Shown here piece after piece: positions 14,705 to 54,195 of a stretch of DNA of 64,000 nucleotides. The stretch's first letter is position 1. Each line of letters begins with the position of its first letter. A model generated the notes under the pieces. The model made no database searches. It saw nothing but the letters and a program-made list of their open reading frames with translations, and was not told the DNA's origin. A program made the translations under genes and the position numbers. The DNA comes from Bursaphelenchus xylophilus (lineage: Eukaryota; Nematoda; Chromadorea; Rhabditida; Aphelenchoididae), in contig CAJFCV020000006.1 of the NCBI GenBank assembly GCA_904066235.2, positions 2,232,001 to 2,296,000 on the forward strand. Reading direction: 5' to 3'.

Positions 14705-15288
14705 TCTGAGAGCAAAACAAGAGTTCACCGAAAAATTAAGGCTGTTTTTATACGCTCTAATTAACTCATAATCCGATTCTTGGCTATTGCGTTAAAAACC
14801 GAATCCTACGTGATTTGCAGTGTTTTTAAAAGCCCCCAATCCTACATGATTTTCACGGCTTTCAAAGGGCAACTACATATAACGACATTAAAGGACAACT
14901 ACAACTTGAAATTTACGGCGTGGCAGACGGCCTGCCGCACTATTGTTTGTTCTCGCATGTCTTGAAAACAATCCAGAAATAATTTTAAAACTGTTGAGCA
15001 ATGGATTTTCGCAGGAAGTATCAAATGATGTGGCAAAATGCCTCCCTCTAAAAAACTCCGATGTCAAAAGCGCGTCCTCCAAAACGGGGTTTTTTCGTTG
15101 GAGAGGGAGGCATTTTGCTACATTTTTTGATACTTCCCGGAAGCAAAATGGTACGTGTTTTGCCATTGGATCAGGTCTGTCACTGTACGAAGAAAAAAAT
15201 TTGTAACATTCCGCCTTCCAAGTCTAAAAGCGAAATTCAAATGCATATACCTTGGTTCTCACAAAAATACGACATAGCAGTAATAGCT
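14705..15288. other. Intergenic spacer
   Basis: Contains the family B element at 15013-15187; otherwise AT-rich with nothing recognisable. Confidence 0.6.
15013..15187. mobile_element. Family B MITE, left end missing
   Basis: GAAGTATCAAATGATGTGGC at the left is the inverse of CTACATTTTTTGATACTTCC at the right. The right terminus is CCATTGGATCAGGTCTGTCA then CTGTA. The interior hairpin has CTCCCTCT / AGAGGGAG. Confidence 0.8.
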
Positions 15289-30714: not shown

Positions 30715-30828
30715 TCGCTTCGGCGAAGTTGTGCACCAAATCTCCAGCCACGGCCAGCCGTCGGAAAGCGATGATGGCCGATTTCAAGCCGCTACGAGTC
30801 CACTATATTTTCCCGACAGGCTGATATC
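30715..30828. mobile_element. Family A (A1) MITE, left end missing
   Basis: The interior GGAAAGCGATGATGGCCG and the right end TATTTTCCCGACAGGCTGA are present. Confidence 0.7.
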
Positions 30829-30985: not shown

Positions 30986-31241
30986 CTTTAAAGACGCATA
31001 AGTACATAATAAAGCGACAACCAGGGCATGTACTGTTAAACATATATCATCATTCTACTATATTTTTGTACCACAGTGGTCACAAATTAATACTATTTAT
31101 AATCATAAACAACAAACATCAATATCTATCAATCATATGCGGCATTTATTTCCTTTAACTACATTTCAGTTAAAATAATTTTAGAAGAAGTTCTCTGCTT
31201 CTTCCGACAATATGTACTATGTATATAAATATAATAAATAA

Positions 31242-34200
31242 TTAGAACTCGCACTTCCCGTCGCATCTACACCATGGCTTCACCAGACCCCAGTTCTCGA
31301 TCTCGGTGTTCATCAGAGTGGCCATGTTGTCGGAGGTTGAGCGCGTCCAACTATTGAATACTGTGCTGATTGAGTCCAGCTTCTCATCGTAGGAGATGGT
31401 CGAGTTCCACACAAGATTGGTGATACGTTTCTTGTAGGCGAGGAAGTTGCTCTTCATGTTACTGCTCCATTCATTGTTGTAGGCGTCGTCCAAGGAATCA
31501 GTGAGCTTTGTGTGATTATTATTAAGTGTAATCCACAAGTAACGGTTGTCGCAGGTTGGTGCAACAGTTGTGGTAGTTGTGGTCGTCGTAGTAGTTGTTG
31601 TTGTAGTTGTGGTAGTAGTCGTTGTTGTGGTGGTTGGCGCTTCGGTTGTAGTGGGTTCTTCTGTAGTCGTGGCCTCAGCAGTGGTAGACTCCTCGGTAGT
31701 GGACTCGAAGGGTTCTTCGGTCGTGGCTTCAGCGGCCTCAGTGGTCGATTCCTCGGCTTCAAAAGTGGTGGTCTCGAAGGGTTCTTCGGTCGTGGATTCA
31801 GCGGCCTCAGTGGTCGATTCCTCGGCTTCAAAAGTGGTGGTCTCGAAGGGTTCTTCGGTCGTGGATTCAGCGGCCTCAGTGGTCGACTCCTCGGCTTCAA
31901 AAGTGGTGGTCTCGAAGGGTTCTTCGGTCGTGGATTCAGCGGCCTCAGTGGTCGACTCCTCGGCTTCAAAAGTGGTGGTCTCGAAGGCTTCTTGAGTCGT
32001 GGATTCAGCGGCTTGAGTGGTCGATTCCTCAGCTTCAGAGGTGGTGGACTCCAAGGCTTCTTGAGTCGTGGATTCAGCGGCTTGAGTGGTCGATTCCTCA
32101 GCTTCAGAGGTGGTGGACTCCAAGGCTTCTTGGGTAGTCGATTCAGCGGCTTGAGTGGTCGATTCCTCGGCTTCAGAGGTGGTGGACTCCAAGGCTTCTT
32201 GGGTAGTCGATTCAACGGCTTGAGTGGTCGATTCCTCAGCTTCAGAGGTGGTGGACTCCAAGGCTTCTTGAGTCGTGGATTCAGCGGCTTGAGTGGTCGA
32301 TTCCTCAGCTTCAGAGGTGGTGGACTCCAAGGCTTCTTGAGTCGTGGATTCAGCAGCTTGAGTGGTCGATTCCTCAGCTTCAGAGGTGGTGGACTCCAAG
32401 GCTTCTTGAGTCGTGGATTCAGCAGCTTGAGTGGTCGATTCCTCAGCTTCAGAGGTGGTGGACTCCAAGGCTTCTTGAGTCGTGGATTCAGCGGCTTGAG
32501 TGGTCGATTCCTCGGCTTCAGAGGTGGTGGACTCCAAGGCTTCTTGGGTAGTCGATTCAGCGGCTTGAGTGGTCGATTCCTCAGCTTCAGAGGTGGTGGA
32601 CTCCAAGGCTTCTTGAGTCGTGGATTCAGCGGCTTGAGTGGTCGATTCCTCGGCTTCAGAGGTGGTAGACTCCAAGGCTTTTTGGGTAGTCGATTCAGCG
32701 GCTTGAGTGGTCGATTCCTCAGCTTCAGAGGTGGTGGACTCCAAGGCTTCTTGGGTAGTCGATTCAGCGGCTTGAGTGGTCGATTCCTCGGCTTCAGAGG
32801 TGGTGGACTCCAAGGCTTCTTGGGTAGTCGATTCAGCGGCTTGAGTGGTCGATTCCTCAGCTTCAGAGGTGGTGGACTCCAAGGCTTCTTGGGTAGTCGA
32901 TTCAGCGGCTTGAGTGGTCGATTCCTCAGCTTCAGAGGTGGTGGACTCCAAGGCTTCTTGAGTCGTGGATTCAGCGGCTTGAGTGGTCGATTCCTCAGCT
33001 TCAGAGGTGGTGGACTCCAAGGCTTCTTGAGTCGTGGATTCAGCGGCTTGAGTGGTCGATTCCTCAGCTTCAGAGGTGGTGGACTCCAAGGCTTCTTGAG
33101 TCGTGGATTCAGCGGCTTGAGTGGTCGATTCCTCAGCTTCAGAGGTGGTGGACTCCAAGGCTTCTTGGGTAGTCGATTCAGCGGCTTGAGTGGTCGATTC
33201 CTCAGCTTCAGAGGTGGTGGACTCCAAGGCTTCTTGAGTCGTGGATTCAGCGGCTTGAGTGGTCGATTCCTCAGCTTCAGAGGTGGTGGACTCCAAGGCT
33301 TCTTGAGTCGTGGATTCAGCGGCTTGAGTGGTCGATTCCTCAGCTTCAGAGGTGGTGGACTCCAAGGCTTCTTGGGTAGTCGATTCAGCGGCTTGAGTGG
33401 TCGATTCCTCAGCTTCAGAGGTGGTGGACTCCAAGGCTTCTTGAGTCGTGGATTCAGCGGCTTGAGTGGTCGATTCCTCAGCTTCAGAGGTGGTGGACTC
33501 CAAGGCTTCTTGAGTCGTGGATTCAGCGGCTTGAGTGGTCGATTCCTCAGCTTCAGAGGTGGTGGACTCCAAGGCTTCTTGGGTAGTCGATTCAGCGGCT
33601 TGAGTGGTCGATTCCTCAGCTTCAGAGGTGGTGGACTCCAAGGCTTCTTGAGTCGTGGATTCAGCGGCTTGAGTGGTCGATTCCTCAGCTTCAGAGGTGG
33701 TGGACTCCAAGGCTTCTTGAGTCGTGGATTCAGCGGCTTGAGTGGTCGATTCCTCAGCTTCAGAGGTGGTGGACTCCAAGGCTTCTTGGGTAGTCGATTC
33801 AGCGGCTTGAGTGGTCGATTCCTCAGCTTCAGAGGTGGTGGACTCCAAGGCTTCTTGAGTCGTGGATTCAGCGGCTTGAGTGGTCGATTCCTCGGCTTCA
33901 GAGGTGGTGGACTCCAAGGCTTCTTGGGTAGTCGATTCAGCGGCCTGAGTGGTCGATTCCTCGGCTTCAGAGGTGGTGGACTCCAAGGCTTCTTGGGTAG
34001 TCGATTCAGCGGCTTGAGTGGTCGATTCCTCAGCTTCAGAGGTGGTGGACTCCAAGGCTTCTTGGGTCGTGGATTCAGCGGCTTGAGTGGTCGATTCCTC
34101 AGCTTCAGAGGTGGTGGACTCCAAGGCTTCTTGAGTCGTGGATTCAGCGGCTTGAGTAGTCGATTCCTCAGCTTCAGAGGTGGTGGACTCTAAGGCTTCT

Positions 34201-37200
34201 TGGGTAGTCGATTCAGCGGCTTGAGTGGTCGATTCCTCAGCTTCAGAGGTGGTGGACTCCAAGGCTTCTTGGGTAGTCGATTCAGCGGCCTGAGTGGTCG
34301 ATTCCTCGGCTTCAGAGGTGGTGGACTCCAAGGCTTCTTGGGTAGTCGATTCAGCGGCTTGAGTGGTCGATTCCTCAGCTTCAGAGGTGGTGGACTCCAA
34401 GGCTTCTTGGGTAGTCGATTCAGCGGCCTGAGTGGTCGATTCCTCAGCTTCAGAGGTGGTGGACTCCAAGGCTTCTTGAGTCGTGGATTCAGCGGCTTGA
34501 GTGGTCGATTCCTCAGCTTCAGAGGTGGTGGACTCCAAGGCTTCTTGGGTCGTGGATTCAGCGGCTTGAGTGGTCGATTCCTCAGCTTCAGAGGTGGTGG
34601 ACTCCAAGGCTTCTTGAGTCGTGGATTCAGCGGCTTGAGTGGTCGATTCCTCGGCTTCAGAGGTGGTGGACTCCAAGGCTTCTTGGGTAGTCGATTCAGC
34701 GGCTTGAGTGGTCGATTCCTCAGCTTCAGAGGTGGTGGACTCCAAGGCTTCTTGGGTCGTGGATTCAGCGGCTTGAGTGGTCGATTCCTCAGCTTCAGAG
34801 GTGGTGGACTCCAAGGCTTCTTGAGTCGTGGATTCAGCGGCTTGAGTGGTCGATTCCTCAGCTTCAGAGGTGGTGGACTCCAAGGCTTCTTGGGTAGTCG
34901 ATTCAGCGGCTTGAGTGGTCGATTCCTCAGCTTCAGAGGTGGTGGACTCCAAGGCTTCTTGAGTCGTGGATTCAGCGGCTTGAGTGGTCGATTCCTCGGC
35001 TTCAGAGGTGGTGGACTCCAAGGCTTCTTGGGTAGTCGATTCAGCGGCTTGAGTGGTCGATTCCTCAGCTTCAGAGGTGGTGGACTCCAAGGCTTCTTGG
35101 GTCGTGGATTCAGCGGCTTGAGTGGTCGATTCCTCAGCTTCAGAGGTGGTGGACTCCAAGGCTTCTTGAGTCGTGGATTCAGCGGCTTGAGTAGTCGATT
35201 CCTCAGCTTCAGAGGTGGTGGACTCCAAAGCTTCTTGGGTAGTCGATTCAGCGGCTTGAGTGGTCAATTCCTCAGCTTCAGAGGTGGTGGACTCCAAGGC
35301 TTCTTGGGTAGTCGATTCAGCGGCTTGAGTGGTCGATTCCTCAGCTTCAGAGGTGGTGGACTCCAAGGCTTCTTGAGTCGTGGATTCAGCGGCTTGAGTA
35401 GTCGATTCCTCAGCTTCAGAGGTGGTGGACTCCAAGGCTTCTTGAGTCGTGGATTCAGCGGCTTGAGTAGTCGATTCCTCAGCTTCAGAGGTGGTGGACT
35501 CCAAGGCTTCTTGAGTCGTGGATTCAGCGGCTTGAGTGGTCGATTCCTCGGCTTCAGAGGTGGTGGACTCCAAGGCTTCTTGGGTAGTCGATTCAGCGGC
35601 CTGAGTGGTCGATTCCTCGGCTTCAGAGGTGGTGGACTCCAAGGCTTCTTGGGTAGTCGATTCAGCGGCTTGAGTGGTCGATTCCTCAGCTTCAGAGGTG
35701 GTGGACTCCAAGGCTTCTTGGGTAGTCGATTCAGCGGCCTGAGTGGTCGATTCCTCAGCTTCAGAGGTGGTGGACTCCAAGGCTTCTTGAGTCGTGGATT
35801 CAGCGGCTTGAGTGGTCGATTCCTCAGCTTCAGAGGTGGTGGACTCCAAGGCTTCTTGGGTAGTCGATTCAGCGGCTTGAGTGGTCGATTCCTCAGCTTC
35901 AGAGGTGGTGGACTCCAAGGCTTCTTGAGTCGTGGATTCAGCGGCTTGAGTGGTCGATTCCTCGGCTTCAGAGGTGGTGGACTCCAAGGCTTCTTGGGTA
36001 GTCGATTCAGCATCTTGAGTGGTCGATTCCTCAGCTTCAGAGGTGGTGGACTCCAAGGCTTCTTGAGTCGTGGATTCAGCGGCTTGAGTGGTCGATTCCT
36101 CAGCTTCAGAGGTGGTGGACTCCAAGGCTTCTTGAGTCGTGGATTCAGCGGCTTGAGTGGTCGATTCCTCAGCTTCAGAGGTGGTGGACTCCAAGGCTTC
36201 TTGAGTCGTGGATTCAGCGGCTTGAGTGGTCGATTCCTCAGCTTCAGAGGTGGTGGACTCCAAGGCTTCTTGGGTAGTCGATTCAGCGGCTTGAGTGGTC
36301 GATTCCTCAGCTTCAGAGGTGGTGGACTCCAAGGCTTCTTGAGTCGTGGATTCAGCGGCTTGAGTGGTCGATTCCTCGGCTTCAGAGGTGGTGGACTCCA
36401 AGGCTTCTTGGGTAGTCGATTCAGCGGCCTGAGTGGTCGATTCCTCGGCTTCAGAGGTGGTGGACTCCAAGGCTTCTTGGGTAGTCGATTCAGCGGCTTG
36501 AGTGGTCGATTCCTCAGCTTCAGAGGTGGTGGACTCCAAGGCTTCTTGGGTAGTCGATTCAGCGGCCTGAGTGGTCGATTCCTCAGCTTCAGAGGTGGTG
36601 GACTCCAAGGCTTCTTGAGTCGTGGATTCAGCGGCTTGAGTGGTCGATTCCTCAGCTTCAGAGGTGGTGGACTCCAAGGCTTCTTGGGTAGTCGATTCAG
36701 CGGCTTGAGTGGTCGATTCCTCAGCTTCAGAGGTGGTGGACTCCAAGGCTTCTTGAGTCGTGGATTCAGCGGCTTGAGTGGTCGATTCCTCGGCTTCAGA
36801 GGTGGTGGACTCCAAGGCTTCTTGGGTAGTCGATTCAGCATCTTGAGTGGTCGATTCCTCAGCTTCAGAGGTGGTGGACTCCAAGGCTTCTTGAGTCGTG
36901 GATTCAGCGGCTTGAGTGGTCGATTCCTCGGCTTCAGAGGTGGTAGACTCCAAGGCTTTTTGGGTAGTCGATTCAGCGGCTTGAGTGGTCGATTCCTCAG
37001 CTTCAGAGGTGGTGGACTCCAAGGCTTCTTGGGTAGTCGATTCAGCGGCTTGAGTGGTCGATTCCTCGGCTTCAGAGGTGGTGGACTCCAAGGCTTCTTG
37101 GGTAGTCGATTCAGCGGCTTGAGTGGTCGATTCCTCAGCTTCAGAGGTGGTGGACTCCAAGGCTTCTTGAGTCGTGGATTCAGCGGCTTGAGTGGTCGAT

Positions 37201-40200
37201 TTCTCAGCTTCAGAGGTGGTGGACTCCAAGGCTTCTTGAGTCGTGGATTCAGCGGCTTGAGTGGTCGATTCCTCGGCTTCAGAGGTGGTGGACTCCAAGG
37301 CTTCTTGGGTAGTCGATTCAGCGGCCTGAGTGGTCGATTCCTCGGCTTCAGAGGTGGTGGACTCCAAGGCTTCTTGGGTAGTCGATTCAGCGGCTTGAGT
37401 GGTCGATTCCTCAGCTTCAGAGGTGGTGGACTCCAAGGCTTCTTGGGTCGTGGATTCAGCGGCTTGAGTGGTCGATTCCTCAGCTTCAGAGGTGGTGGAC
37501 TCCAAGGCTTCTTGAGTCGTGGATTCAGCGGCTTGAGTAGTCGATTCCTCAGCTTCAGAGGTGGTGGACTCCAAGGCTTCTTGGGTAGTCGATTCAGCGG
37601 CTTGAGTGGTCGATTCCTCAGCTTCAGAGGTGGTGGACTCCAAGGCTTCTTGGGTAGTCGATTCAGCGGCTTGAGTAGTCGATTCCTCAGCTTCAGAGGT
37701 GGTGGACTCCAAGGCTTCTTGGGTAGTCGATTCAGCGGCTTGAGTGGTCGATTCCTCGGCTTCAGAGGTGGTGGACTCCAAGGCTTCTTGGGTAGTCGAT
37801 TCAGCGGCTTGAGTGGTCGATTCCTCAGCTTCAGAGGTGGTGGACTCCAAGGCTTCTTGGGTCGTGGATTCAGCGGTTTGAGTAGTCGATTCCTCAGCTT
37901 CAGAGGTGGTGGACTCCAAGGCTTCTTGGGTAGTCGATTCAGCGGCTTGAGTGGTCGATTCCTCAGCTTCAGAGGTGGTGGACTCCAAGGCTTCTTGGGT
38001 AGTCGATTCAGCGGCTTGAGTAGTCGATTCCTCAGCTTCAGAGGTGGTGGACTCCAAGGCTTCTTGGGTAGTCGATTCAGCGGCTTGAGTGGTCGATTCC
38101 TCGGCTTCAGAGGTGGTGGACTCCAAGGCTTCTTGGGTAGTCGATTCAGCGGCTTGAGTGGTCGATTCCTCAGCTTCAGAGGTGGTGGACTCCAAGGCTT
38201 CTTGGGTCGTGGATTCAGCGGTTTGAGTAGTCGATTCCTCAGCTTCAGAGGTGGTGGACTCCAAGGCTTCTTGGGTAGTCGATTCAGCGGCTTGAGTGGT
38301 CGATTCCTCAGCTTCAGAGGTGGTGGACTCCAAGGCTTCTTGGGTAGTCGATTCAGCGGCTTGAGTGGTCGATTCCTCGGCTTCAGAGGTGGTGGACTCC
38401 AAGGCTTCTTGAGTCGTGGATTCCGCGGCTTGAGTGGTCGATTCCTCGGCTTCAGAGGTGGTGGACTCCAAGGCTTCTTGGGTAGTCGATTCAGCGGCTT
38501 GAGTGGTCGATTCCTCAGCTTCAGAGGTGGTGGACTCCAAGGCTTCTTGGGTCGTGGATTCAGCGGTTTGAGTAGTCGATTCCTCAGCTTCAGAGGTGGT
38601 GGACTCCAAGGCTTCTTGGGTAGTCGATTCAGCGGCTTGAGTGGTCGATTCCTCGGCTTCAGAGGTGGTGGACTCCAAGGCTTCTTGGGTAGTCGATTCA
38701 GCGGCTTGAGTGGTCGATTCCTCAGCTTCAGAGGTGGTGGACTCCAAGGCTTCTTGGGTCGTTGATTCAGCGGCTTGAGTGGTCGATTCCTCAGCTTCAG
38801 AGGTGGTGGACTCCAAGGCTTCTTGGGTAGTCGATTCAGCGCCTTGAGTGGTCGATTCCTCGGCTTCAGAGGTGGTGGACTCCAAGGCTTCTTGAGTCGT
38901 GGATTCAGCGGCTTGAGTGGTCGATTCCTCGGCTTCAGAGGTGGTGGACTCCAAGGCTTCTTGAGTCGTGGATTCAGCGGCTTGAGTAGTCGATTCCTCA
39001 GCTTCAGAGGTGGTGGACTCCAAGGCTTCTTGGGTAGTCGATTCAGCGGCTTGAGTGGTCGATTCCTCAGCTTCAGAGGTGGTGGACTCCAAGGCTTCTT
39101 GGGTAGTCGATTCAGCGGCTTGAGTGGTCGATTCCTCGGCTTCAGAGGTGGTGGACTCCAAGGCTTCTTGAGTCGTGGATTCCGCGGCTTGAGTGGTCGA
39201 TTCCTCGGCTTCAGAGGTGGTGGACTCCAAGGCTTCTTGGGTAGTCGATTCAGCGGCTTGAGTGGTCGATTCCTCAGCTTCAGAGGTGGTGGACTCCAAG
39301 GCTTCTTGGGTCGTGGATTCAGCGGCTTGAGTGGTCGATTCCTCAGCTTCAGAGGTGGTGGACTCCAAGGCTTCTTGAGTCGTGGATTCAGCGGCTTGAG
39401 TGGTCGATTCCTCAGCTTCAGAGGTGGTGGACTCCAAGGCTTCTTGAGTCGTGGATTCAGCGGCTTGAGTAGTCGATTCCTCAGCTTCAGAGGTGGTGGA
39501 CTCCAAGGCTTCTTGGGTAGTCGATTCAGCGGCTTGAGTGGTCGATTCCTCGGCTTCAGAGGTGGTGGACTCCAAGGCTTCTTGGGTCGTGGATTCAGCG
39601 GCTTGAGTGGTCGATTCCTCGGCTTCAGAGGTGGTGGACTCCAAGGCTTCTTGGGTCGTGGATTCAGCGGCTTGAGTAGTCGATTCCTCAGCTTCAGAGG
39701 TGGTGGACTCCAAGGCTTCTTGGGTAGTTGATTCAGCGGCTTGAGTGGTCGATTCCTCAGCTTCAGAGGTGGTGGACTCCAAGGCTTCTTGGGTAGTCGA
39801 TTCAGCGGCTTGAGTGGTCGATTCCTCAGCTTCAGAGGTGGTGGACTCCAAGGCTTCTTGGGTAGTCGATTCAGCGGCTTGAGTGGTCGATTCCTCAGCT
39901 TCAGAGGTGGTGGACTCTAAGGCTTCTTGGGTAGTCGATTCAGCGGCTTGAGTGGTCGATTCCTCAGCTTCAGAGGTGGTGGACTCCAAGGCTTCTTGAG
40001 TCGTGGATTCAGCGGCTTGAGTAGTCGATTCCTCAGCTTCAGAGGTGGTGGACTCCAAGGCTTCTTGGGTAGTCGATTCAGCGGCTTGAGTGGTCGATTC
40101 CTCAGCTTCAGAGGTGGTGGACTCCAAGGCTTCTTGGGTCGTGGATTCAGCGGCTTGAGTAGTCGATTCCTCAGCTTCAGAGGTGGTGGACTCCAAGGCT

Positions 40201-43200
40201 TCTTGGGTAGTCGATTCAGCGGCTTGAGTGGTCGATTCCTCAGCTTCAGAGGTGGTGGACTCCAAGGCTTCTTGGGTAGTCGATTCAGCGGCTTGAGTGG
40301 TCGATTCCTCAGCTTCAGAGGTGGTGGACTCCAAGGCTTCTTGGGTAGTCGATTCAGCGGCTTGAGTGGTCGATTCCTCAGCTTCAGAGGTGGTGGACTC
40401 CAAGGCTTCTTGAGTCGTGGATTCAGCGGCTTGAGTAGTCGATTCCTCAGCTTCAGAGGTGGTGGACTCCAAGGCTTCTTGGGTAGTCGATTTAGCGGCT
40501 TGAGTGGTCGATTCCTCGGCTTCAGAGGTGGTGGACTCCAAGGCTTCTTGGGTCGTGGATTCAGCGGCTTGAGTAGTCGATTCCTCGGCTTCAGAGGTGG
40601 TGGACTCCAAGGCTTCTTGAGTCGTGGATTCAGCGGCTTGAGTGGTCGATTCCTCAGCTTCAGAGGTGGTGGACTCCAAGGCTTCTTGAGTCGTGGATTC
40701 AGCGGCTTGAGTGGTCGATTCCTCGGCTTCAGAGGTGGTGGGCTCCAAGGCTTCTTGAGTCGTGGATTCAGCGGCTTGAGTGGTCGATTCCTCAGCTTCA
40801 GAGGTGGTGGACACCAAGGCTTCTTGGGTAGTCGATTCAGCGGCTTGAGTGGTCGACTCCTCAGCTTCAGAGGTGGTGGACTCCAAGGCTTCTTGAGTCG
40901 TGGATTCAGCGGCTTGAGTAGTCGATTCCTCAGCTTCAGAGGTGGTGGACTCCAAGGCTTCTTGGGTAGTCGATTCAGCGGCTTGAGTGGTCGATTCCTC
41001 AGCTTCAGAGGTGGTGGACTCCAAGGCTTCTTGGGTAGTCGATTCAGCGGCTTGAGTGGTCGATTCCTCAGCTTCAGAGGTGGTGGACTCCAAGGCTTCT
41101 TGAGTCGTGGATTCAGCGGCTTGAGTAGTCGATTCCTCAGCTTCAGAGGTGGTGGACTCCAAGGCTTCTTGGGTAGTCGATTCAGCGGCTTGAGTGGTCG
41201 ATTCCTCAGCTTCAGAGGTGGTGGACTCCAAGGCTTCTTGGGTAGTCGATTCAGCGGCTTGAGTGGTCGATTCCTCAGCTTCAGAGGTGGTGGACTCCAA
41301 GGCTTCTTGAGTCGTGGATTCAGCGGCTTGAGTAGTCGATTCCTCAGCTTCAGAGGTGGTGGACTCCAAGGCTTCTTGAGTCGTGGATTCAGCGGCTTGA
41401 GTAGTCGATTCCTCAGCTTCAGAGGTGGTGGACTCCAAGGCTTCTTGGGTAGTCGATTCAGCGGCTTGAGTGGTCGATTCCTCAGCTTCAGAGGTGGTGG
41501 ACTCCAAGGCTTCTTGAGTCGTGGATTCAGCGGCTTGAGTAGTCGATTCCTCAGCTTCAGAGGTGGTGGACTCCAAGGCTTCTTGGGTAGTCGATTCAGC
41601 GGCTTGAGTGGTCGATTCCTCAGCTTCAGAGGTGGTGGACTCCAAGGCTTCTTGGGTAGTCGATTCAGCGGCTTGAGTGGTCGATTCCTCAGCTTCAGAG
41701 GTGGTGGACTCCAAGGCTTCTTGAGTCGTGGATTCAGCGGCTTGAGTAGTCGATTCCTCAGCTTCAGAGGTGGTGGACTCCAAGGCTTCTTGGGTAGTCG
41801 ATTCAGCGGCTTGAGTGGTCGATTCCTCAGCTTCAGAGGTGGTGGACTCCAAGGCTTCTTGGGTAGTCGATTCAGCGGCTTGAGTGGTCGATTCCTCAGC
41901 TTCAGAGGTGGTGGACTCCAAGGCTTCTTGAGTCGTGGATTCAGCGGCTTGAGTAGTCGATTCCTCAGCTTCAGAGGTGGTGGACTCCAAGGCTTCTTGG
42001 GTAGTCGATTCAGCGGCTTGAGTGGTCGATTCCTCAGCTTCAGAGGTGGTGGACTCCAAGGCTTCTTGGGTCGTGGATTCAGCGGCTTGAGTAGTCGATT
42101 CCTCAGCTTCAGAGGTGGTGGACTCCAAGGCTTCTTGGGTAGTCGATTCAGCGGCTTGAGTGGTCGATTCCTCGGCTTCAGAGGTGGTGGACTCCAAGGC
42201 TTCTTGGGTAGTCGATTCAGCGGCTTGAGTGGTCGATTCCTCAGCTTCAGAGGTGGTGGACTCCAAGGCTTCTTGGGTAGTCGATTCAGCGGCTTGAGTG
42301 GTCGATTCCTCAGCTTCAGAGGTGGTGGACTCCAAGGCTTCTTGGGTAGTCGATTCAGCGGCTTGAGTGGTCGATTCCTCAGCTTCAGAGGTGGTGGACT
42401 CCAAGGCTTCTTGAGTCGTGGATTCAGCGGCTTGAGTGGTCGATTCCTCGGCTTCAGAGGTGGTGGACTCCAAGGCTTCTTGAGTCGTGGATTCAGCGGC
42501 TTGAGTGGTCGATTCCTCGGCTTCAGAGGTGGTGGACTCCAAGGCTTCTTGGGTAGTCGATTCAGCGGCTTGAGTGGTCGATTCCTCGGCTTCAGAGGTG
42601 GTGGACTCCAAGGCTTCTTGAGTCGTGGATTCAGCGGCTTGAGTGGTCGATTCCTCAGCTTCAGAGGTGGTGGACTCCAAGGCTTCTTGGGTAGTCGATT
42701 CAGCGGCTTGAGTGGTCGATTCCTCAGCTTCAGAGGTGGTGGACTCCAAGGCTTCTTGAGTCGTGGATTCAGCGGCTTGAGTGGTCGATTCCTCGGCTTC
42801 AGAGGTGGTGGACTCCAAGGCTTCTTGGGTAGTCGATTCAGCGGCTTGAGTGGTCGATTCCTCGGCTTCAGAGGTGGTGGACTCCAAGGCTTCTTGGGTC
42901 GTGGATTCAGCGGCTTGAGTAGTCGATTCCTCGGCTTCAGAGGTGGTGGACTCCAAGGCTTCTTGAGTCGTGGATTCAGCGGCTTGAGTGGTCGATTCCT
43001 CAGCTTCAGAGGTGGTGGACTCCAAGGCTTCTTGAGTCGTGGATTCAGCGGCTTGAGTGGTCGATTCCTCGGCTTCAGAGGTGGTGGACTCCAAGGCTTC
43101 TTGAGTCGTGGATTCAGCGGCTTGAGTGGTCGATTCCTCAGCTTCAGAGGTGGTGGACTCCAAGGCTTCTTGGGTAGTCGATTCAGCGGCTTGAGTGGTC

Positions 43201-46200
43201 GATTCCTCAGCTTCAGAGGTGGTGGACTCCAAGGCTTCTTGAGTCGTGGATTCAGCGGCTTGAGTAGTCGATTCCTCAGCTTCAGAGGTGGTGGACTCCA
43301 AGGCTTCTTGGGTAGTCGATTCAGCGGCTTGAGTGGTCGATTCCTCAGCTTCAGAGGTGGTGGACTCCAAGGCTTCTTGAGTAGTCGATTCAGCGGCTTG
43401 AGTGGTCGATTCCTCAGCTTCAGAGGTGGTGGACTCCAAGGCTTCTTGAGTCGTGGATTCAGCGGCTTGAGTAGTCGATTCCTCAGCTTCAGAGGTGGTG
43501 GACTCCAAGGCTTCTTGGGTAGTCGATTCAGCGGCTTGAGTGGTCGATTCCTCAGCTTCAGAGGTGGTGGACTCCAAGGCTTCTTGGGTCGTGGATTCAG
43601 CGGCTTGAGTAGTCGATTCCTCAGCTTCAGAGGTGGTGGACTCCAAGGCTTCTTGGGTAGTCGATTCAGCGGCTTGAGTGGTCGATTCCTCGGCTTCAGA
43701 GGTGGTGGACTCCAAGGCTTCTTGGGTAGTCGATTCAGCGGCTTGAGTGGTCGATTCCTCAGCTTCAGAGGTGGTGGACTCCAAGGCTTCTTGGGTAGTC
43801 GATTCAGCGGCTTGAGTGGTCGATTCCTCAGCTTCAGAGGTGGTGGACTCCAAGGCTTCTTGGGTAGTCGATTCAGCGGCTTGAGTGGTCGATTCCTCAG
43901 CTTCAGAGGTGGTGGACTCCAAGGCTTCTTGAGTCGTGGATTCAGCGGCTTGAGTGGTCGATTCCTCGGCTTCAGAGGTGGTGGACTCCAAGGCTTCTTG
44001 AGTCGTGGATTCAGCGGCTTGAGTGGTCGATTCCTCGGCTTCAGAGGTGGTGGACTCCAAAGCTTCTTGGGTAGTCGATTCAGCGGCTTGAGTGGTCGAT
44101 TCCTCGGCTTCAGAGGTGGTGGACTCCAAGGCTTCTTGAGTCGTGGATTCAGCGGCTTGAGTGGTCGATTCCTCAGCTTCAGAGGTGGTGGACTCCAAGG
44201 CTTCTTGGGTAGTCGATTCAGCGGCTTGAGTGGTCGATTCCTCAGCTTCAGAGGTGGTGGACTCCAAGGCTTCTTGAGTCGTGGATTCAGCGGCTTGAGT
44301 GGTCGATTCCTCGGCTTCAGAGGTGGTGGACTCCAAGGCTTCTTGAGTCGTGGATTCAGCGGCTTGAGTGGTCGATTCCTCGGCTTCAGAGGTGGTGGAC
44401 TCCAAGGCTTCTTGAGTCGTGGACTCAGCGGCTTGAGTGGTCGATTCCTCAGCTTCAGAGGTGGTGGACTCCACGGCTTCTTGGGTCGTGGATTCAGCGG
44501 CTTGAGTAGTCGATTCCTCAGCTTCAGAGGTGGTGGACTCCAAGGCTTCTTGGGTAGTCGATTCAGCGGCTTGAGTGGTCGATTCCTCGGCTTCAGAGGT
44601 GGTGGACTCCAAGGCTTCTTGGGTCGTGGATTCAGCGGCTTGAGTAGTCGATTCCTCAGCTTCAGAGGTGGTGGACTCCAAGGCTTCTTGGGTAGTCGAT
44701 TCAGCGGCTTGAGTGGTCGATTCCTCGGCTTCAGAGGTGGTGGACTCCAAGGCTTCTTGGGTAGTCGATTCAGCGGCTTGAGTGGTCGATTCCTCAGCTT
44801 CAGAGGTGGTGGACTCCAAGGCTTCTTGGGTAGTCAATTCAGCGGCTTGAGTGGTCGATTCCTCAGCTTCAGAGGTGGTGGACTCCAAGGCTACTTGGGT
44901 AGTCGATTCAGCGGCTTGAGTGGTCGATTCCTCAGCTTCAGAGGTGGTGGACTCCAAGGCTTCTTGAGTCGTGGATTCAGCGGCTTGAGTGGTCGATTCC
45001 TCGGCTTCAGAGGTGGTGGACTCCAAAGCTTCTTGGGTAGTCGATTCAGCGGCTTGAGTGGTCGATTCCTCGGCTTCAGAGGTGGTGGACTCCAAGGCTT
45101 CTTGAGTCGTGGATTCAGCGGCTTGAGTGGTCGATTCCTCAGCTTCAGAGGTGGTGGACTCCAAGGCTTCTTGGGTAGTCGATTCAGCGGCTTGAGTGGT
45201 CGATTCCTCAGCTTCAGAGGTGGTGGACTCCAAGGCTTCTTGAGTCGTGGATTCAGCGGCTTGAGTGGTCGATTCCTCGGCTTCAGAGGTGGTGGACTCC
45301 AAGGCTTCTTGAGTCGTGGATTCAGCGGCTTGAGTGGTCGATTCCTCGGCTTCAGAGGTGGTGGACTCCAAAGCTTCTTGGGTAGTCGATTCAGCGGCTT
45401 GAGTGGTCGATTCCTCGGCTTCAGAGGTGGTGGACTCCAAGGCTTCTTGAGTCGTGGATTCAGCGGCTTGAGTGGTCGATTCCTCAGCTTCAGAGGTGGT
45501 GGACTCCAAGGCTTCTTGGGTAGTCGATTCAGCGGCTTGAGTGGTCGATTCCTCAGCTTCAGAGGTGGTGGACTCCAAGGCTTCTTGAGTCGTGGATTCA
45601 GCGGCTTGAGTGGTCGATTCCTCGGCTTCAGAGGTGGTGGACTCCAAGGCTTCTTGAGTCGTGGATTCAGCGGCTTGAGTGGTCGATTCCTCGGCTTCAG
45701 AGGTGGTGGACTCCAAGGCTTCTTGAGTCGTGGACTCAGCGGCTTGAGTGGTCGATTCCTCAGCTTCAGAGGTGGTGGACTCCACGGCTTCTTGGGTCGT
45801 GGATTCAGCGGCTTGAGTAGTCGATTCCTCAGCTTCAGAGGTGGTGGACTCCAAGGCTTCTTGGGTAGTCGATTCAGCGGCTTGAGTGGTCGATTCCTCG
45901 GCTTCAGAGGTGGTGGACTCCAAGGCTTCTTGGGTCGTGGATTCAGCGGCTTGAGTAGTCGATTCCTCAGCTTCAGAGGTGGTGGACTCCAAGGCTTCTT
46001 GGGTAGTCGATTCAGCGGCTTGAGTGGTCGATTCCTCGGCTTCAGAGGTGGTGGACTCCAAGGCTTCTTGGGTAGTCGATTCAGCGGCTTGAGTGGTCGA
46101 TTCCTCAGCTTCAGAGGTGGTGGACTCCAAGGCTTCTTGGGTAGTCAATTCAGCGGCTTGAGTGGTCGATTCCTCAGCTTCAGAGGTGGTGGACTCCAAG

Positions 46201-49200
46201 GCTACTTGGGTAGTCGATTCAGCGGCTTGAGTGGTCGATTCCTCAGCTTCAGAGGTGGTGGACTCCAAGGCTTCTTGAGTCGTGGATTCAGCGGCTTGAG
46301 TGGTCGATTCCTCGGCTTCAGAGGTGGTGGACTCCAAAGCTTCTTGGGTAGTCGATTCAGCGGCTTGAGTGGTCGATTCCTCGGCTTCAGAGGTGGTGGA
46401 CTCCAAGGCTTCTTGAGTCGTGGATTCAGCGGCTTGAGTGGTCGATTCCTCAGCTTCAGAGGTGGTGGACTCCAAGGCTTCTTGGGTAGTCGATTCAGCG
46501 GCTTGAGTGGTCGATTCCTCAGCTTCAGAGGTGGTGGACTCCAAGGCTTCTTGAGTCGTGGATTCAGCGGCTTGAGTGGTCGATTCCTCGGCTTCAGAGG
46601 TGGTGGACTCCAAGGCTTCTTGAGTCGTGGATTCAGCGGCTTGAGTGGTCGATTCCTCGGCTTCAGAGGTGGTGGACTCCAAGGCTTCTTGAGTCGTGGA
46701 CTCAGCGGCTTGAGTGGTCGATTCCTCAGCTTCAGAGGTGGTGGACTCCACGGCTTCTTGGGTCGTGGATTCAGCGGCTTGAGTAGTCGATTCCTCAGCT
46801 TCAGAGGTGGTGGACTCCAAGGCTTCTTGGGTAGTCGATTCAGCGGCTTGAGTGGTCGATTCCTCGGCTTCAGAGGTGGTGGACTCCAAGGCTTCTTGGG
46901 TCGTGGATTCAGCGGCTTGAGTAGTCGATTCCTCAGCTTCAGAGGTGGTGGACTCCAAGGCTTCTTGGGTAGTCGATTCAGCGGCTTGAGTGGTCGATTC
47001 CTCAGCTTCAGAGGTGGTGGACTCCAAGGCTTCTTGGGTAGTCGATTCAGCGGCTTGAGTGGTCGATTCCTCGGCTTCAGAGGTGGTGGACTCCAAGGCT
47101 TCTTGGGTCGTGGATTCAGCGGCTTGAGTAGTCGATTCCTCAGCTTCAGAGGTGGTGGACTCCAAGGCTTCTTGGGTAGTCGATTCAGCGGCTTGAGTGG
47201 TCGATTCCTCAGCTTCAGAGGTGGTGGACTCCAAGGCTTCGAAAGTAGTAGACTCGAAGGGTTCTTCGGTCGTGGATTCGGCGGCCTCAGTGGTCGATTC
47301 CTCGGCTTCGAAAGTAGTGGATTCAGCAGCCTCAGTGGTCGATTCCTCGGCTTCGAAAGTAGTGGATTCAGCGGCCTCAGTGGTCGATTCCTCGGCTTCG
47401 AAAGTAGTAGACTCGAAGGGTTCTTCGGTCGTGGATTCGGCGGCCTCAGTGGTCGATTCCTCGGCTTCGAAAGTAGTGGATTCAGCGGCCTCAGTGGTCG
47501 ATTCCTCGGCTTCGAAAGTAGTAGACTCGAAGGGTTCTTCGGTCGTGGATTCGGCGGCCTCAGTGGTCGATTCCTCGGCTTCAAAAGTAGTGGATTCAGC
47601 AGCCTCAGTGGTCGATTCCTCGGCTTCGAAAGTAGTGGATTCGGCGGCCTCAGTGGTCGATTCCTCGGCTTCGAAAGTAGTGGATTCAGCGGCCTCAGTG
47701 GTCGATTCCTCGGCTTCGAAAGTAGTGGATTCAGCGGCCTCAGTGGTCGATTCCTCGGCTTCGAAAGTAGTAGACTCGAAGGGTTCTTCGGTCGTGGATT
47801 CGGCGGCCTCAGTGGTCGATTCCTCGGCTTCGAAAGTAGTGGATTCAGCGGCCTCAGTGGTCGATTCCTCGGCTTCGAAAGTAGTAGACTCGAAGGGTTC
47901 TTCGGTCGTGGATTCGGCGGCCTCAGTGGTCGATTCCTCGGCTTCAAAAGTAGTGGATTCAGCAGCCTCAGTGGTCGATTCCTCGGCTTCGAAAGTAGTG
48001 GATTCAGCGGCCTCAGTGGTCGATTCCTCGGCTTCGAAGGTAGTGGATTCAGCAGCCTCAGTGGTCGATTCCTCGGCTTCGAAAGTAGTAGATTCAGCGG
48101 CCTCAGTGGTCGATTCCTCGGCTTCGAAAGTAGTAGACTCGAAGGGTTCTTCGGTCGTGGATTCGGCGGCCTCAGTGGTCGATTCCTCGGCTTCGAAAGT
48201 AGTAGACTCGAAGGGTTCTTCGGTCGTGGATTCGGCGGCCTCAGTGGTCGATTCCTCGGCTTCGAAAGTAGTGGATTCAGCGGCCTCAGTGGTCGATTCC
48301 TCGGCTTCGAAAGTAGTAGACTCGAAGGGTTCTTCGGTCGTGGATTCGGCGGCCTCAGTGGTCGATTCCTCGGCTTCGAAGGTAGTGGATTCAGCAGCCT
48401 CAGTGGTCGATTCCTCAGCTTCGAAAGTAGTAGATTCAGCGGCCTCAGTGGTCGATTCCTCGGCTTCGAAAGTAGTAGACTCGAAGGGTTCTTCGGTCGT
48501 GGATTCGGCGGCCTCAGTGGTCGATTCCTCGGCTTCGAAAGTAGTAGACTCGAAGGGTTCTTCGGTCGTGGATTCGGCGGCCTCAGTGGTCGATTCCTCG
48601 GCTTCGAAAGTAGTGGATTCAGCGGCCTCAGTGGTCGATTCCTCGGCTTCGAAAGTAGTAGACTCGAAGGGTTCTTCGGTCGTGGATTCGGCGGCCTCAG
48701 TGGTCGATTCCTCGGCTTCGAAAGTAGTGGATTCAGCGGCCTCAGTGGTCGATTCCTCGGCTTCGAAAGTAGTAGACTCGAAGGGTTCTTCGGTCGTGGA
48801 TTCGGCGGCCTCAGTGGTCGATTCCTCGGCTTCGAAAGTAGTGGATTCAGCAGCCTCAGTGGTCGATTCCTCGGCTTCGAAAGTAGTGGATTCAGCGGCC
48901 TCAGTGGTCGATTCCTCGGCTTCGAAAGTAGTAGACTCGAAGGGTTCTTCGGTCGTGGATTCGGCGGCCTCAGTGGTCGATTCCTCGGCTTCGAAAGTAG
49001 TGGATTCAGCGGCCTCAGTGGTCGATTCCTCGGCTTCGAAAGTAGTAGACTCGAAGGGTTCTTCGGTCGTGGATTCGGCGGCCTCAGTGGTCGATTCCTC
49101 GGCTTCAAAAGTAGTGGATTCAGCAGCCTCAGTGGTCGATTCCTCGGCTTCGAAAGTAGTGGATTCGGCGGCCTCAGTGGTCGATTCCTCGGCTTCGAAA

Positions 49201-50643
49201 GTAGTGGATTCAGCGGCCTCAGTGGTCGATTCCTCGGCTTCGAAAGTAGTGGATTCAGCGGCCTCAGTGGTCGATTCCTCGGCTTCGAAAGTAGTAGACT
49301 CGAAGGGTTCTTCGGTCGTGGATTCGGCGGCCTCAGTGGTCGATTCCTCGGCTTCAAAAGTAGTGGATTCAGCGGCCTCAGTGGTCGATTCCTCGGCTTC
49401 GAAAGTAGTAGACTCGAAGGGTTCTTCGGTCGTGGATTCGGCGGCCTCAGTGGTCGATTCCTCGGCTTCGAAGGTAGTGGATTCAGCAGCCTCAGTGGTC
49501 GATTCCTCGGCTTCGAAAGTAGTAGATTCAGCGGCCTCAGTGGTCGATTCCTCGGCTTCGAAAGTAGTAGACTCGAAGGGTTCTTCGGTCGTGGATTCGG
49601 CGGCCTCAGTGGTCGATTCCTCGGCTTCGAAAGTAGTAGACTCGAACGGTTCTTCGGTCGTGGATTCGGCGGCCTCAGTGGTCCATTCCTCGGCTTCGAA
49701 AGTAGTGGATTCAGCGGCCTCAGTGGTCGATTCCTCGGCTTCGAAAGTAGTAGACTCGAAGGGTTCTTCGGTCGTGGATTCGGCGGCCTCAGTGGTCGAT
49801 TCCTCGGCTTCGAAAGTAGTGGATTCAGCGGCCTCAGTGGTCGATTCCTCGGCTTCGAAAGTAGTAGACTCGAAGGGTTCTTCGGTCGTGGATTCGGCGG
49901 CCTCAGTGGTCGATTCCTCGGCTTCGAAGGTAGTGGATTCAGCAGCCTCAGTGGTCGATTCCTCGGCTTCGAAAGTAGTGGATTCAGCGGCCTCAGTGGT
50001 CGATTCCTCGGCTTCGAAAGTAGTAGACTCGAAGGGTTCTTCGGTCGTGGATTCGGCGGCCTCAGTGGTCGATTCCTCGGCTTCGAAAGTAGTGGATTCA
50101 GCAGCCTCAGTGGTCGATTCCTCGGCTTCGAAAGTAGTAGACTCGAAGGGTTCTTCGGTCGTGGATTCGGCGGCCTCAGTGGTCGATTCCTCGGCTTCGA
50201 AAGTAGTGGATTCAGCAGCCTCAGTGGTCGATTCCTCGGCTTCGAAAGTAGTAGACTCGAAGGGTTCTTCGGTCGTGGATTCAGCGGCCTCAGTGGTCGA
50301 TTCCTCGGCTTCGAAAGTAGTAGACTCGAAGGGTTCTTCGGTCGTGGATTCAGCGGCCTCAGTGGTCGATTCCTCAGCTTCAAAGGCGGTAGACTCCAAG
50401 GGTTCTTCGGTTGTGGAGTCTAATGATGCCACGACCTCGCTGTTGTTCTCCGCCTCTCTGACAACTCTACGAGTTTCATTTTTCTGTGAAGGAGCAATTC
50501 GTCGATCGGCAATGTAGCCGACTATTATATCGTATAATAAAGGGGATGCTGAATTTGAAAAAAATGTTAAATTGCTCATTACGGATCCTCTTACCATTTG
50601 CACTCACAAGGAACAACAAAACCAGCCATGAGTAGATTCTCAT
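31242..50643 (-). CDS. Giant secreted acidic Ser/Thr-rich repeat protein (mucin-like)
   Basis: Exon 1 (50643-50595, 49 nt) encodes a signal peptide. A 46-nt intron (GTAAGA...TTCAG, 50594-50549) joins it in frame, phase 1, to one 19,307-nt exon (50548-31242). The product is about 6,451 residues and reads MRIYSWLVLLFLVSANA, with predicted cleavage after ANA. A basic linker (about 40 residues, KNETRR) follows. Next come F-type repeats built from modules ESTTFEAE, ESTTEAA and ESTTEEPF. About 221 tandem 23-residue Q-type units follow (modules ESTTSEAE, ESTTQAA, ESTTQEAL). Four C-terminal F-type units (FETTT), a run of 23 Thr, and a 103-residue end domain with four Cys and two N-glycosylation sites (NHT, NST) finish the protein. 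There is no membrane helix after the signal. The expected fate is secretion with dense O-glycosylation, for example in the surface coat, cuticle, mucus or a gland product. I know no named homolog. The frame stays open throughout, and most unit variation is synonymous, which supports a real gene. Copy number may be affected by assembly. Confidence 0.85.
31688..31985 (-). repeat. C-terminal F-type units of the giant protein
   Basis: Four 69-bp units encoding FETTTFEAE, ESTTEAA and ESTTEEP-type modules. They differ from the N-terminal F units by Thr for Ser in FETTT. They separate the Q-type array from the poly-Thr tract. Confidence 0.85.
37876..38620 (-). repeat. Higher-order repeat of 345 bp (5 units)
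   Basis: The QTAE variant (GCGGTTTGAG on the plus strand) occurs at 37876, 38221 and 38566, exactly 345 bp (5 x 69) apart, with matching neighbours. Confidence 0.85.
44400..46970 (-). repeat. Higher-order duplication of 1,311 bp (19 units) and 966 bp (14 units)
   Basis: Three rare variants recur together at one spacing. The QEAV change is at 44471 and 45782, AELTTQ at 44831 and 46142, and QVAL at 44889 and 46200, each pair exactly 1,311 bp (19 x 69) apart. QEAV occurs a third time at 46748, 966 bp (14 x 69) further on. This is direct evidence of block duplication by unequal exchange. Confidence 0.9.
47233..50400 (-). repeat. N-terminal F-type array of mixed 69-bp and 45-bp units
   Basis: The 23-residue unit (ESTTFEAE, ESTTEAA, ESTTEEPF) is interspersed with a 15-residue unit that lacks the third module. 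The 69/45 order varies and itself recurs (for example 47.5-48.2 kb against 49.0-49.6 kb), indicating duplication of blocks. Confidence 0.9.
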
Positions 50644-50706
50644 TTTCAAGGGCTCCGTTCCTTCCCGAGCACTGAATGTAATGTGCTGAACGTAACGGCG
50701 TTCGGC

Positions 50707-50714
50707 TTTTTATA
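50707..50714 (-). promoter_or_regulatory. TATA box of the giant repeat gene
   Basis: TATAAAAA on the minus strand, about 64-71 bp upstream of the start codon, in GC-rich surroundings. A transcription start near 50680 is inferred. Confidence 0.5.
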
Positions 50715-51014
50715 CGGGCGTGTTGACGTGTGGGCGCCGGTGGAATTCCTGAGCAGGGTCAGAACTCTAATCCGTGTCCGCCGATCCGCCGATACATTGC
50801 GTGGTAGAATTTTTGGAAAAAAACATCGAAAAAAGCTTCAAGGCTTTGGGTTGTTATGCAAATCGTGTGTGTCGAGAGCTGCGGCTGTTCAAAAAAAACG
50901 ATTGAATTTTGGAGTTCCAGGGATTGGCGTACTGTGGACGGCGTCTTCACGTCATTGTGCATCGTATCGATGTCGGGCTTTAAAAAAAACGAAAATGGAA
51001 AAAATCTTTTAAAT

Positions 51015-51169
51015 ATTGGTCTGTCGGGAAAATAATGTGGATTTGTTGCAACAAAATATCTCGTCTTGTCATAGTCATGGGCCAAATTTTCTGGTAGCCA
51101 TCTCAAAGCGATGAAGGGCGATTTTAAGCCGCTACGAATCCACATTATTTTCCCGACAGACTGATATAA
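51015..51169. mobile_element. Family A (A1) MITE
   Basis: The ends are GGTCTGTCGGGAAAATAATG and TTATTTTCCCGACAGACTGA flanked by TA. The interior has AAAGCGATGAAGGGCG. Confidence 0.85.
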
Positions 51170-52735: not shown

Positions 52736-53329
52736 CAATGCAAAAAATCTGTATTTTTTACCAAACTTTCAACCTGAAAATCTCGGTCGTTTTTGCAAAG
52801 CGCGCATACGTCTTGAAGAAATTTAGTCTCAATTTCTCCCGAGTTTTTTCCTGTGAACCAATTCTTTATAACATCACTTTCGACCTTTTACTGAGTATAA
52901 ATGAATGATGAAACTGCACTCGCCTCCCCGAAACTTTAATTCCCTCGCTCCTGTTTTCCACCGCGGATTATACGTTTCGCTTTTCCATCTGTTCTAACCT
53001 TTGAACGGGATTCCGCAAAAAACTTTTGACGTGGACTGCCGGGATGATGTAATCCCGGCGTTCGTACTTTGTCAAGGACTCTCTTGCAACAATCAAATCG
53101 AACGCTGACTGTTACGTGAACACGGGCGTAGCTGAGCAAAAATTCTGAGGGGAGGGGAGAGGCCTGGGGTCGGTATGTAAGAAACAAAATTACCTTTGTC
53201 CTCCCTTACCATTATTTTTCTTCGACCCCGGCCTGGGGGGCCATAGGAGATGATTTGCAAAATTTTGAAAAATTGGCAAGGGGGGACCAAGGGGCTCCAA
53301 AAAGCTCGACAAAGTCGCTAGAATGATTT

Positions 53330-53850
53330 TTGCGACACGCACTGTGCGAAAACAAAAGTTCACTTTGCACTGTGCAGTTTCTTGCTTTTATTTTTTCGAC
53401 ATTCACTGTGCAAATTAAAAAAATTTCGCTTTGCACTGTGCAATTTCTTTCTTTTATTTTTGCGACATGCACTGTGCGAAAACCAAAGTTCACTTTGCAC
53501 TGTGCGATTTCTCGCTTTTATTTTCGCGACATGCACTGTGCGAAAACAAAAGTTCACTTTGCACTGTGCAATTTCTTGCTTTAATTTTTACGACATGCAC
53601 TGTGCGAAAACCAAAGTTCACTTTGCACTGTGCAATTTCTCGCTTTTACTTTCGCGACATGCACTGTGCGTAAAAAAAATTTCACTTTGCACTGTGCAAT
53701 TTGCTTCTTTTATTTTCGCGAGATGCACTGTGCGAAAACAAAGGTTCTCTTTGCACTGTGCGGTGTCTTACTTTTATTTTTGCGACATGCACTGTGTGAA
53801 AACAAAAGTTCACTTTGCACTGCGCGATTTCTTGTTTTTTTGCACCGTGC
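53330..53850. repeat. Tandem array of a 64-bp unit with paired CACTGTGC motifs
   Basis: Eight copies at about 64-bp spacing (near 53333, 53396, 53463, 53527, 53590, 53655, 53719 and 53783). Each has GCGACATGCACTGTGCGAAA, then CACTTTGCACTGTGCAATTT and CTTGCTTTTATTTT. The unit is an amplified form of the left arm of the element at 4045-4570. Several frames are open across it only because of periodicity. Confidence 0.9.
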
Positions 53851-53872
53851 AATAGGCGGTTTTGCTGAGGAA

Positions 53873-54195
53873 TTTGGCTTCGTGGAAACTGGACAGAGTG
53901 AAATTGGACAGAGTGAAATTGGACAGAAATAATTTGGACAGAGCGTGTAAATTGGACAGAGTGAAATTGGACAGAGTGAAACTCGACAGATTTTTTTTCA
54001 CTGCAAAAAATAATTATTTGATGATTCAATATTGACATTTCGTACGATTGCAGCGAAAATCTGTCCAATTTCACTCTGTCCAATTTCACTCTGTCCAATT
54101 TCACCCTGTCCAATTTCCACGCTCTGTCCAAATTATTTCTGTCCAATTTCACTCTGTCGAATTTCACTCTGTCCAATTTCCACGAAGCCAGGAAT
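53873..54195. repeat. Palindrome whose arms are 15-bp tandem repeats
   Basis: The left arm has repeated GGACAGAGTGAAATT units between TTGGCTTCGTGGAAA and a spacer near 54030. The right arm is the complement (AATTTCACTCTGTCC), ending TTTCCACGAAGCCA. Arms are about 130 bp. Confidence 0.85.

What the first reader, a model, noticed from the sequence alone, without database searches (positions are those of the whole stretch)
31242..50643. A 6,450-residue secreted repeat protein encoded by one 19.3 kb exon
The reading frame stays open for 19.3 kb and is preceded by a short exon that encodes a good signal peptide and splices in frame (G plus CA giving Ala at the cleavage site). The protein is nearly all Glu, Ser, Thr and Ala with an ESTT core every 7-8 residues, so it should be a long, acidic, heavily O-glycosylated filament. 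I know no named nematode protein with this unit. It could be a surface-coat, cuticle, mucus or gland product.
Basis: partly seen in the sequence, partly recalled or inferred. Interest (0 to 1): 0.85.

Follow-up and report, generated by a model that had tools for sequence, protein, structure and literature searches.

The report
Giant mucin-like secreted nematode protein
The pinewood nematode genome carries a gene for a huge, acidic, repeat-built secreted protein that looks like a mucin and ends in a small domain shared by a family of otherwise different repeat proteins, probably made in the worm's salivary (pharyngeal) glands.

Summary
On the minus strand a 49-nt signal-peptide exon, a 46-nt phase-1 intron and a 19.3-kb exon (50548-31242) encode 6,451 residues. 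The long exon has no Met before residue 6381. All seven repeat variants in five or more copies are silent in this frame, against 0 and 1 of 7 in the other stop-free frames, so selection acts on the protein. The genome matches Bursaphelenchus xylophilus Ka4C1. The repeat unit was found only in this gene, but the last 104 residues define a family of at least 12 loci without a Pfam match. Members read join that domain to unrelated tracts: ESTT 23-mers, 186 decapeptides, or Ser-Gly runs. Seven of 12 carry the published gland-associated promoter motif STATAWAARS within 300 bp of the ATG; here it ends 62 bp upstream. Best reading: a giant salivary mucin-like polymer with an anchoring or assembly domain at its end. 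Gland expression, glycosylation and assembly are inferred. It is a new variant of the nematode secreted-mucin theme, with an unnamed end domain instead of ShK.

The parts
50706..50715 (-). GTATAAAAAG: exact STATAWAARS / TATA element, ending 62 bp upstream of the ATG
   Evidence: motif and its 40-70 bp peak from PMC6062891
50595..50643 (-). exon 1: signal peptide MRIYSWLVLLFLVSAN plus the first base of the Ala codon
   Evidence: signal peptide judged by eye (no predictor here)
50549..50594 (-). 46-nt phase-1 intron, GT...AG
   Evidence: a phase-1 intron after a 49-nt signal-peptide exon also in the paralogue at C6:0.87 Mb
31242..50548 (-). exon 2, 19.3 kb, stop codon included
50418..50546 (-). 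unique N-terminal segment of the mature protein, residues 18-60, with 2 N-glycosylation sequons
47217..50417 (-). outer repeat block: mixed 15- and 23-residue E-type units (EAEESTTEAAESTTF / EAEESTTEAAESTTEEPFESTTF)
32037..47216 (-). core: 220 units of the 23-residue Q type (EAEESTTQAAESTTQEALESTTS), all in register
31635..32036 (-). C-terminal E-type units (4) and transition
31566..31634 (-). run of 23 Thr before the end domain
31245..31556 (-). 104-residue end domain shared by a family of at least 12 loci; holds the only 4 Cys of the mature protein; predicted helical
31145..31150 (-). AATAAA polyadenylation signal
   Evidence: by eye

Best explanation
A giant secreted mucin-like polymer of the pinewood nematode, most likely made in the pharyngeal (salivary) gland cells. 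Shown from sequence: a signal-peptide exon in splice-ready frame with one 19.3-kb exon; about 280 tandem acidic Ser/Thr units, of which the 220-unit core shows selection on the protein; a conserved Cys-bounded end domain shared with 11 other loci. Inferred: the signal peptide sends the chain into gland secretory granules, Ser/Thr residues are O-glycosylated, the dense negative charge makes a stretched, water-holding chain of micrometre length, and the helical end domain anchors or pairs chains so that they form a gel or lining. The likely use is lubricating and lining the stylet and pharyngeal lumen, or coating the feeding site, as proposed for the mucin-like gland proteins of C. elegans.
For: Gene model. 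Selection on the repeats. Selection on the end domain against the nearest paralogue: differences at codon positions 38/19/52 over 104 codons, LWL85 dN 0.28 and dS 1.51 (NG86 dN 0.31, dS not computable). Family: the same 12 loci from two reciprocal queries, 9 of them from a third. Repeat units found only in their own genes while the end domain is shared. A public protein model (P0001) splices the relative at C4:12.558 across the same kind of phase-1 signal-peptide intron. Promoter motif in 7 of 12 members, against 597 of 17,735 genes in PMC6062891; binomial 3e-8 if independent, 8e-5 with tandem copies collapsed (4 of 8, the 12.635/12.640 pair counted as having it because one of the two does), 1e-3 with the two chromosome-6 genes merged too. 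Between clusters the 130 bp upstream do not align at the motif; the only match between clusters at E<=0.01 is a 21-bp stretch elsewhere. C. elegans precedent: PMC2563036 (passages).
Against: No transcript, protein or tissue data were seen. The motif is an extended TATA box and may mark any strongly tissue-specific gene: vitellogenin-like genes are in the published table, though one is marked as confirmed in glands. In PMC6062891 7 of 10 newly tested motif genes were in the glands, and 22 of 42 candidates tested to date, most others giving no signal. In this window 3 motif matches stand against 0.95 expected, reached by 6 of 100 shuffles, so its mere presence is unremarkable; the weight lies in position and in the family. 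As a small control, 0 of 3 GH45 cellulase loci looked at (of 17 matches), each with 1.5-kb flanks, held the exact motif. Five of 12 family members lack it. No tool here predicts O-glycosylation, and the mature chain has little Pro (36 of 6,434), unlike classical PTS mucins. The end domain has no Pfam match, so its role is a guess.
Confidence: 0.5

Rival explanations
1. Surface-coat or cuticle mucin: the protein is made by hypodermis or seam cells (or glands) and coats the body surface, as suggested for Mi-MUC-1 of Meloidogyne incognita and the Toxocara canis mucins.
For: Composition and signal peptide fit equally well. Mi-MUC-1 is Ser/Thr-rich and its knock-down reduced attachment of bacterial spores to the cuticle (PMC6638177, summary and passages).
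Against: Promoter motif at the gland-typical distance here, and the motif in 6 further family members.
Confidence: 0.25
2. Host-facing repeat effector in the manner of the HYP family of Globodera: secreted into the plant apoplast, with fast-changing tandem repeats between conserved ends.
For: Similar plan: signal peptide, tandem repeats that differ in kind between members, conserved flank (PMC4177990, abstract and Results part 1). Promoter motif used to pick the published candidate effectors.
Against: No sign of diversifying change in the core: amino-acid variants are in at most 3 copies each and the common variants are silent. A 673-kDa polymer is an unlikely signalling molecule (inference). 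The worm is also cultured on fungus.
Confidence: 0.15
3. Structural polymer of eggs, uterus or molting matrix: the Ser-Gly-rich members are proteoglycans of the egg and the ESTT member is a companion.
For: One UniProt relative bears the automatic name 'Egg protein' (A0A1I7RJ62). Ser-Gly runs with acidic neighbours are typical glycosaminoglycan sites (recalled). GT43 enzymes are reported as more numerous than in other nematodes (PMC3164644 passage); 23 exon-level GT43 matches here.
Against: The name is automatic. The giant has 0.06% Gly. Promoter motif as above.
Confidence: 0.1
4. Not a gene: a 69-bp satellite that is open by chance because its period is divisible by three.
For: A long antisense frame is open too.
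Against: Silent variation in this frame, signal-peptide exon, conserved end domain with paralogues, promoter and polyA signals at the two ends.
Confidence: 0.02

Closest known systems
Toxocara canis secreted mucins (MUC) and C. elegans PHAT pharyngeal-gland proteins (PMC2563036, passages; Loukas 2000 seen as a title only)
   Same: Secreted nematode families with diverse Ser/Thr-rich tracts and a shared small domain; PHAT genes are pharyngeal-gland genes and PHAT-5 lines the lumen.
   Different: The shared domain there is the six-Cys ShK/SXC motif; here it is a predicted helical domain with no Pfam match. The repeat array here is thousands of residues long.
HYP effectors of Globodera pallida (PMC4177990, abstract and Results part 1)
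   Same: Family with conserved ends around tandem repeats that differ in kind between subfamilies.
   Different: HYP repeats are 5-17 residues, vary between individuals and are expressed in amphid-associated cells; the unit here is 23 residues and its protein sequence is kept.
Mi-MUC-1 of Meloidogyne incognita (PMC6638177, summary and passages)
   Same: Ser/Thr-rich protein of a plant-parasitic nematode with predicted O-glycosylation.
   Different: 1,125-bp gene; its sequence was not compared here.
B. xylophilus A0A1I7RJ48 (P0001), A0A1I7RJ62 (P0004), P0005, and a B. okinawaensis protein (P0002)
   Same: True relatives: they share the end domain (27-33% identity to the giant's).
   Different: 443-571 aa; short Ser-Gly tracts (none in the P0004 model) and further internal domains instead of the ESTT array.
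Spider silk proteins (recalled)
   Same: Plan: repeat polymer plus a small conserved helical end domain.
   Different: No sequence kinship shown; composition here is acidic Ser/Thr, not Gly/Ala-rich.

Membership tests
B. xylophilus end-domain family (defined here) | C-terminal domain with invariant C2, W30, Y41-x-K43-R44-I45, W70-T71, W89-G90, C98 among 9 aligned members (positions in the giant's domain) | tested here: met
Nematode ShK mucins (T. canis MUC, C. elegans PHAT) | signal peptide plus Ser/Thr-rich tracts | tested here: met
   signal peptide by eye only
Nematode ShK mucins (T. canis MUC, C. elegans PHAT) | six-cysteine ShK/SXC domains | tested here: not met
   no ShK match in the last 104 or the first 100 residues; only 4 Cys in the protein, residues 6349-6449, so none in the array
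STATAWAARS gland-gene set of B. xylophilus | STATAWAARS within 300 bp, peaking 40-70 bp upstream | tested here: met
   motif ends 62 bp upstream of the ATG
STATAWAARS gland-gene set of B. xylophilus | expression in pharyngeal gland cells | not testable with these tools
   no expression data held
HYP effectors | conserved ends around subfamily-specific tandem repeats | tested here: inconclusive
   plan similar; sequence homology to HYP not tested
Gel-forming mucins (VWD / cystine knot; features recalled) | VWD, C8, CK domains | tested here: not met
   no such Pfam match in the unique ends; no Cys in the array
Spidroins | homologous spidroin terminal domain | tested here: inconclusive
   no Pfam match; the model of the end domain is only of moderate confidence (pLDDT 67), so fold comparison cannot decide

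The most novel reading that the evidence does not exclude
A silk-like design in nematode saliva: one small helical end domain, unknown to Pfam, has been combined with unrelated, separately evolving repeat polymers (ESTT 23-mers, an EGSTTSQAEN-type decapeptide, Ser-Gly runs) to make a set of gland-secreted polymers whose assembly is controlled by the shared end domain, the largest being 6,451 residues.
Probability: 0.2. Interest if true: 0.8.

Novelty: new variant of a known kind. Interest (0 to 1): 0.55.

Why it matters
PMC6638177 (2018, summary) states that mucin function in plant-parasitic nematodes was still unknown. This gene and its family give a genome-defined set of candidate salivary mucins in a major forest pest, with a domain by which to recognise relatives and a promoter prediction that existing gland RNA data could test. 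It also shows how a 19-kb low-complexity coding exon can be missed: no protein of its size class with this end was found in the 5.8-billion-sequence set (194 candidates, none at E<=0.01), although a B. xylophilus protein from a contig of the same length as C4 of this genome is in that set. Ten literature searches of the held library showed no paper on this gene or domain in the rows listed; most lists were partial, and subscription journals are not covered.
Full report
What is there. The window lies at C6:2232001-2296000 of a 78,253,340-bp genome in 8 contigs. Its size, a 12,794,883-bp contig equal to the published N50 of 12,794 kb, 17 exon-level matches to GH45 cellulases and a protein record labelled B. 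xylophilus from a contig of exactly 12,794,883 bp identify it, by inference, as Bursaphelenchus xylophilus strain Ka4C1. The paper (PMC7561696, whole text) counts 11 scaffolds, not 8; I take this as a difference of release. On the minus strand a 49-nt exon encodes MRIYSWLVLLFLVSAN plus one base; a 46-nt GT-AG intron follows; the second exon runs 19.3 kb to a TAA at 31244-31242. The product has 6,451 residues. Met occurs at 1, 6381, 6425 and 6429 only, so the long exon has no start of its own before the end domain.

Architecture. Residues 18-60 are unique. Then come mixed 15/23-residue E-type units, 220 Q-type 23-residue units in register, 4 more E-type units, a run of 23 Thr, and a 104-residue end domain holding the 4 Cys of the protein. 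The mature chain is 673 kDa, pI 4.05, with 2,724 Ser+Thr, 1,741 acidic and 21 basic residues.

Is it coding? A 69-bp unit keeps its frame open automatically, so length proves little; a long antisense frame is open too. The variation among the 220 core units answers it. These were picked by an amino-acid pattern, but they fill residues 1128-6187 without a gap, so no unit there was left out. Of 447 variant bases 426 are silent in the proposed frame; by distinct variants 14 are silent and 13 not, against 52 silent and 155 not among all possible single changes; the seven variants in five or more copies are all silent. The other two frames that are stop-free on the consensus give 0 and 1 of 7. Copies spread by duplication, so cells are not independent, but amino-acid variants stay rare (at most 3 copies each). 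For the E-type units the pattern fixed the amino acids, so no such test was possible. No frame-breaking indel lies in the 19.3 kb of this Nanopore/Illumina assembly. The end domain differs from its nearest paralogue by 38, 19 and 52 changes at codon positions 1, 2 and 3.

Family. The end domain finds 12 places in the genome at E<=10, the weakest at 0.0018; a distant member finds the same 12 at E<=0.01, a third query 9 of them. The tool calls such counts lower bounds. Nearest is C6:0.87 Mb (60% identity): spliced at two introns it gives 373 residues, MKFTTVCVLGMLVVMT-A, with a 49-nt exon 1 and a phase-1 intron as in the giant, and a degenerate Thr/Ala/Glu tract. At C4:2.956-2.963 Mb one uninterrupted frame gives 2,149 residues with 186 in-register decapeptides (commonest EGSSTSQAEN, 56, and EGSTTSQAEN, 51) before the same domain. 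Of the seven members at C4:7.59-7.61 and 12.56-12.64 Mb I looked at the frames of four (L019, L020, L023, L025); they carry Ser-Gly or Ser-rich tracts of very different length and internal domains that may be distant copies of the end domain. C4:7.634 looks short and without repeats, and C4:2.954 nearly so. At the thresholds used neither the ESTT unit (130 matches, E<=1e-6) nor the decapeptide (37 matches, E<=1e-5) was found outside its own gene. So the end domain is shared while the tracts are private. A search with the member at C4:12.558 found five proteins among 4,820 candidates: three from B. xylophilus (two with the automatic names 'PKD domain-containing protein' and 'Egg protein'), one from B. 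okinawaensis (65% identity) and one from an unnamed source; four of the five hold the end domain, the unnamed one (353 aa) ends before it. Neither the giant nor the C6:0.87 protein was found there.

Where is it made? Espada et al. 2018 (PMC6062891; [quoted passage not shown] The giant has GTATAAAAAG ending 62 bp upstream. The window holds 3 matches in 64 kb against 0.95 expected, which 6 of 100 shuffles reach, so position and family carry the weight. Of the 12 members (start codons assigned by me) 7 have an exact match within 300 bp, at 62-66 bp in six and 100 bp in one; chance 3e-8 if independent, 8e-5 with tandem copies collapsed, 1e-3 with the chromosome-6 pair merged as well. The upstream regions of the giant, the C6:0.87 gene and the C4 clusters do not align with each other at the motif. 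Against this: the motif is an extended TATA box; 0 of 3 GH45 loci examined had it exactly; 5 of 12 members lack it.

How it probably works. In C. elegans pharyngeal glands secrete mucin-related PHAT proteins, one of which lines the lumen, and loss of gland function impairs feeding (PMC2563036, passages); its authors call lubrication by these proteins a speculative model. The family here shows the same plan with a different small domain. I infer a gland-secreted, sugar-coated polyanion that lubricates or lines the stylet and pharynx or forms a gel at the feeding site, with the end domain as anchor or assembly unit. AlphaFold gives the end domain four helices at pLDDT 67; its role is open.

Verdict. 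A real, very large secreted protein and a new variant of nematode secreted mucin-like families; the striking part is an unnamed end domain joined to unrelated repeats in a family of at least 12 loci. Interest 0.55: size and family plan are unusual, but the function is inferred.

Noticed in passing
window 51022-51158, 30797-30818 and elsewhere; also in intron 2 of the C6:0.87 paralogue (L016, about 2665-2812): Short inverted-repeat element with ends like TGTCGGGAAAATAATGTGGATT: 17 matches with up to 3 mismatches in the window, 0.00 expected. One copy lies upstream of the giant gene, one end-like match downstream; the copy in L016 was seen by eye.
   Followed up: partly
window 2289-10268 (minus) and 62768-63226 (plus): Serpentine chemoreceptor-like fragments (Str/Srd/Srj) on both sides of the giant gene: 4 of the 10 frames scanned matched those families at E<=0.01, one of them below the Pfam cut-offs; three further long frames (12963-18406) matched nothing.
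   Followed up: partly
window 21322-22804 (plus): Cation-efflux (CDF/ZnT-like) transporter exons, one of two frames over the Pfam cut-off.
   Followed up: no
window 57411-57779 (plus): Zc3h12a-like (Regnase) NYN ribonuclease exon.
   Followed up: no
L018 789-7235 (C4:2956288-2962734): A second single-exon repeat giant: 2,149 residues with 186 in-register decapeptides; no exact STATAWAARS but GTATATATAG ending about 62 bp upstream.
   Followed up: partly
C2, C3, C4, C5 of the own genome: 23 exon-level matches to GT43 glucuronyltransferases. PMC3164644 says the reason for the increase of these genes is unclear (passage); the Ser-Gly-rich family members could be substrates (speculation).
   Followed up: partly
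window 53326-54184: Tandem arrays of 64-bp and 15/48/63-bp units close to each other.
   Followed up: no
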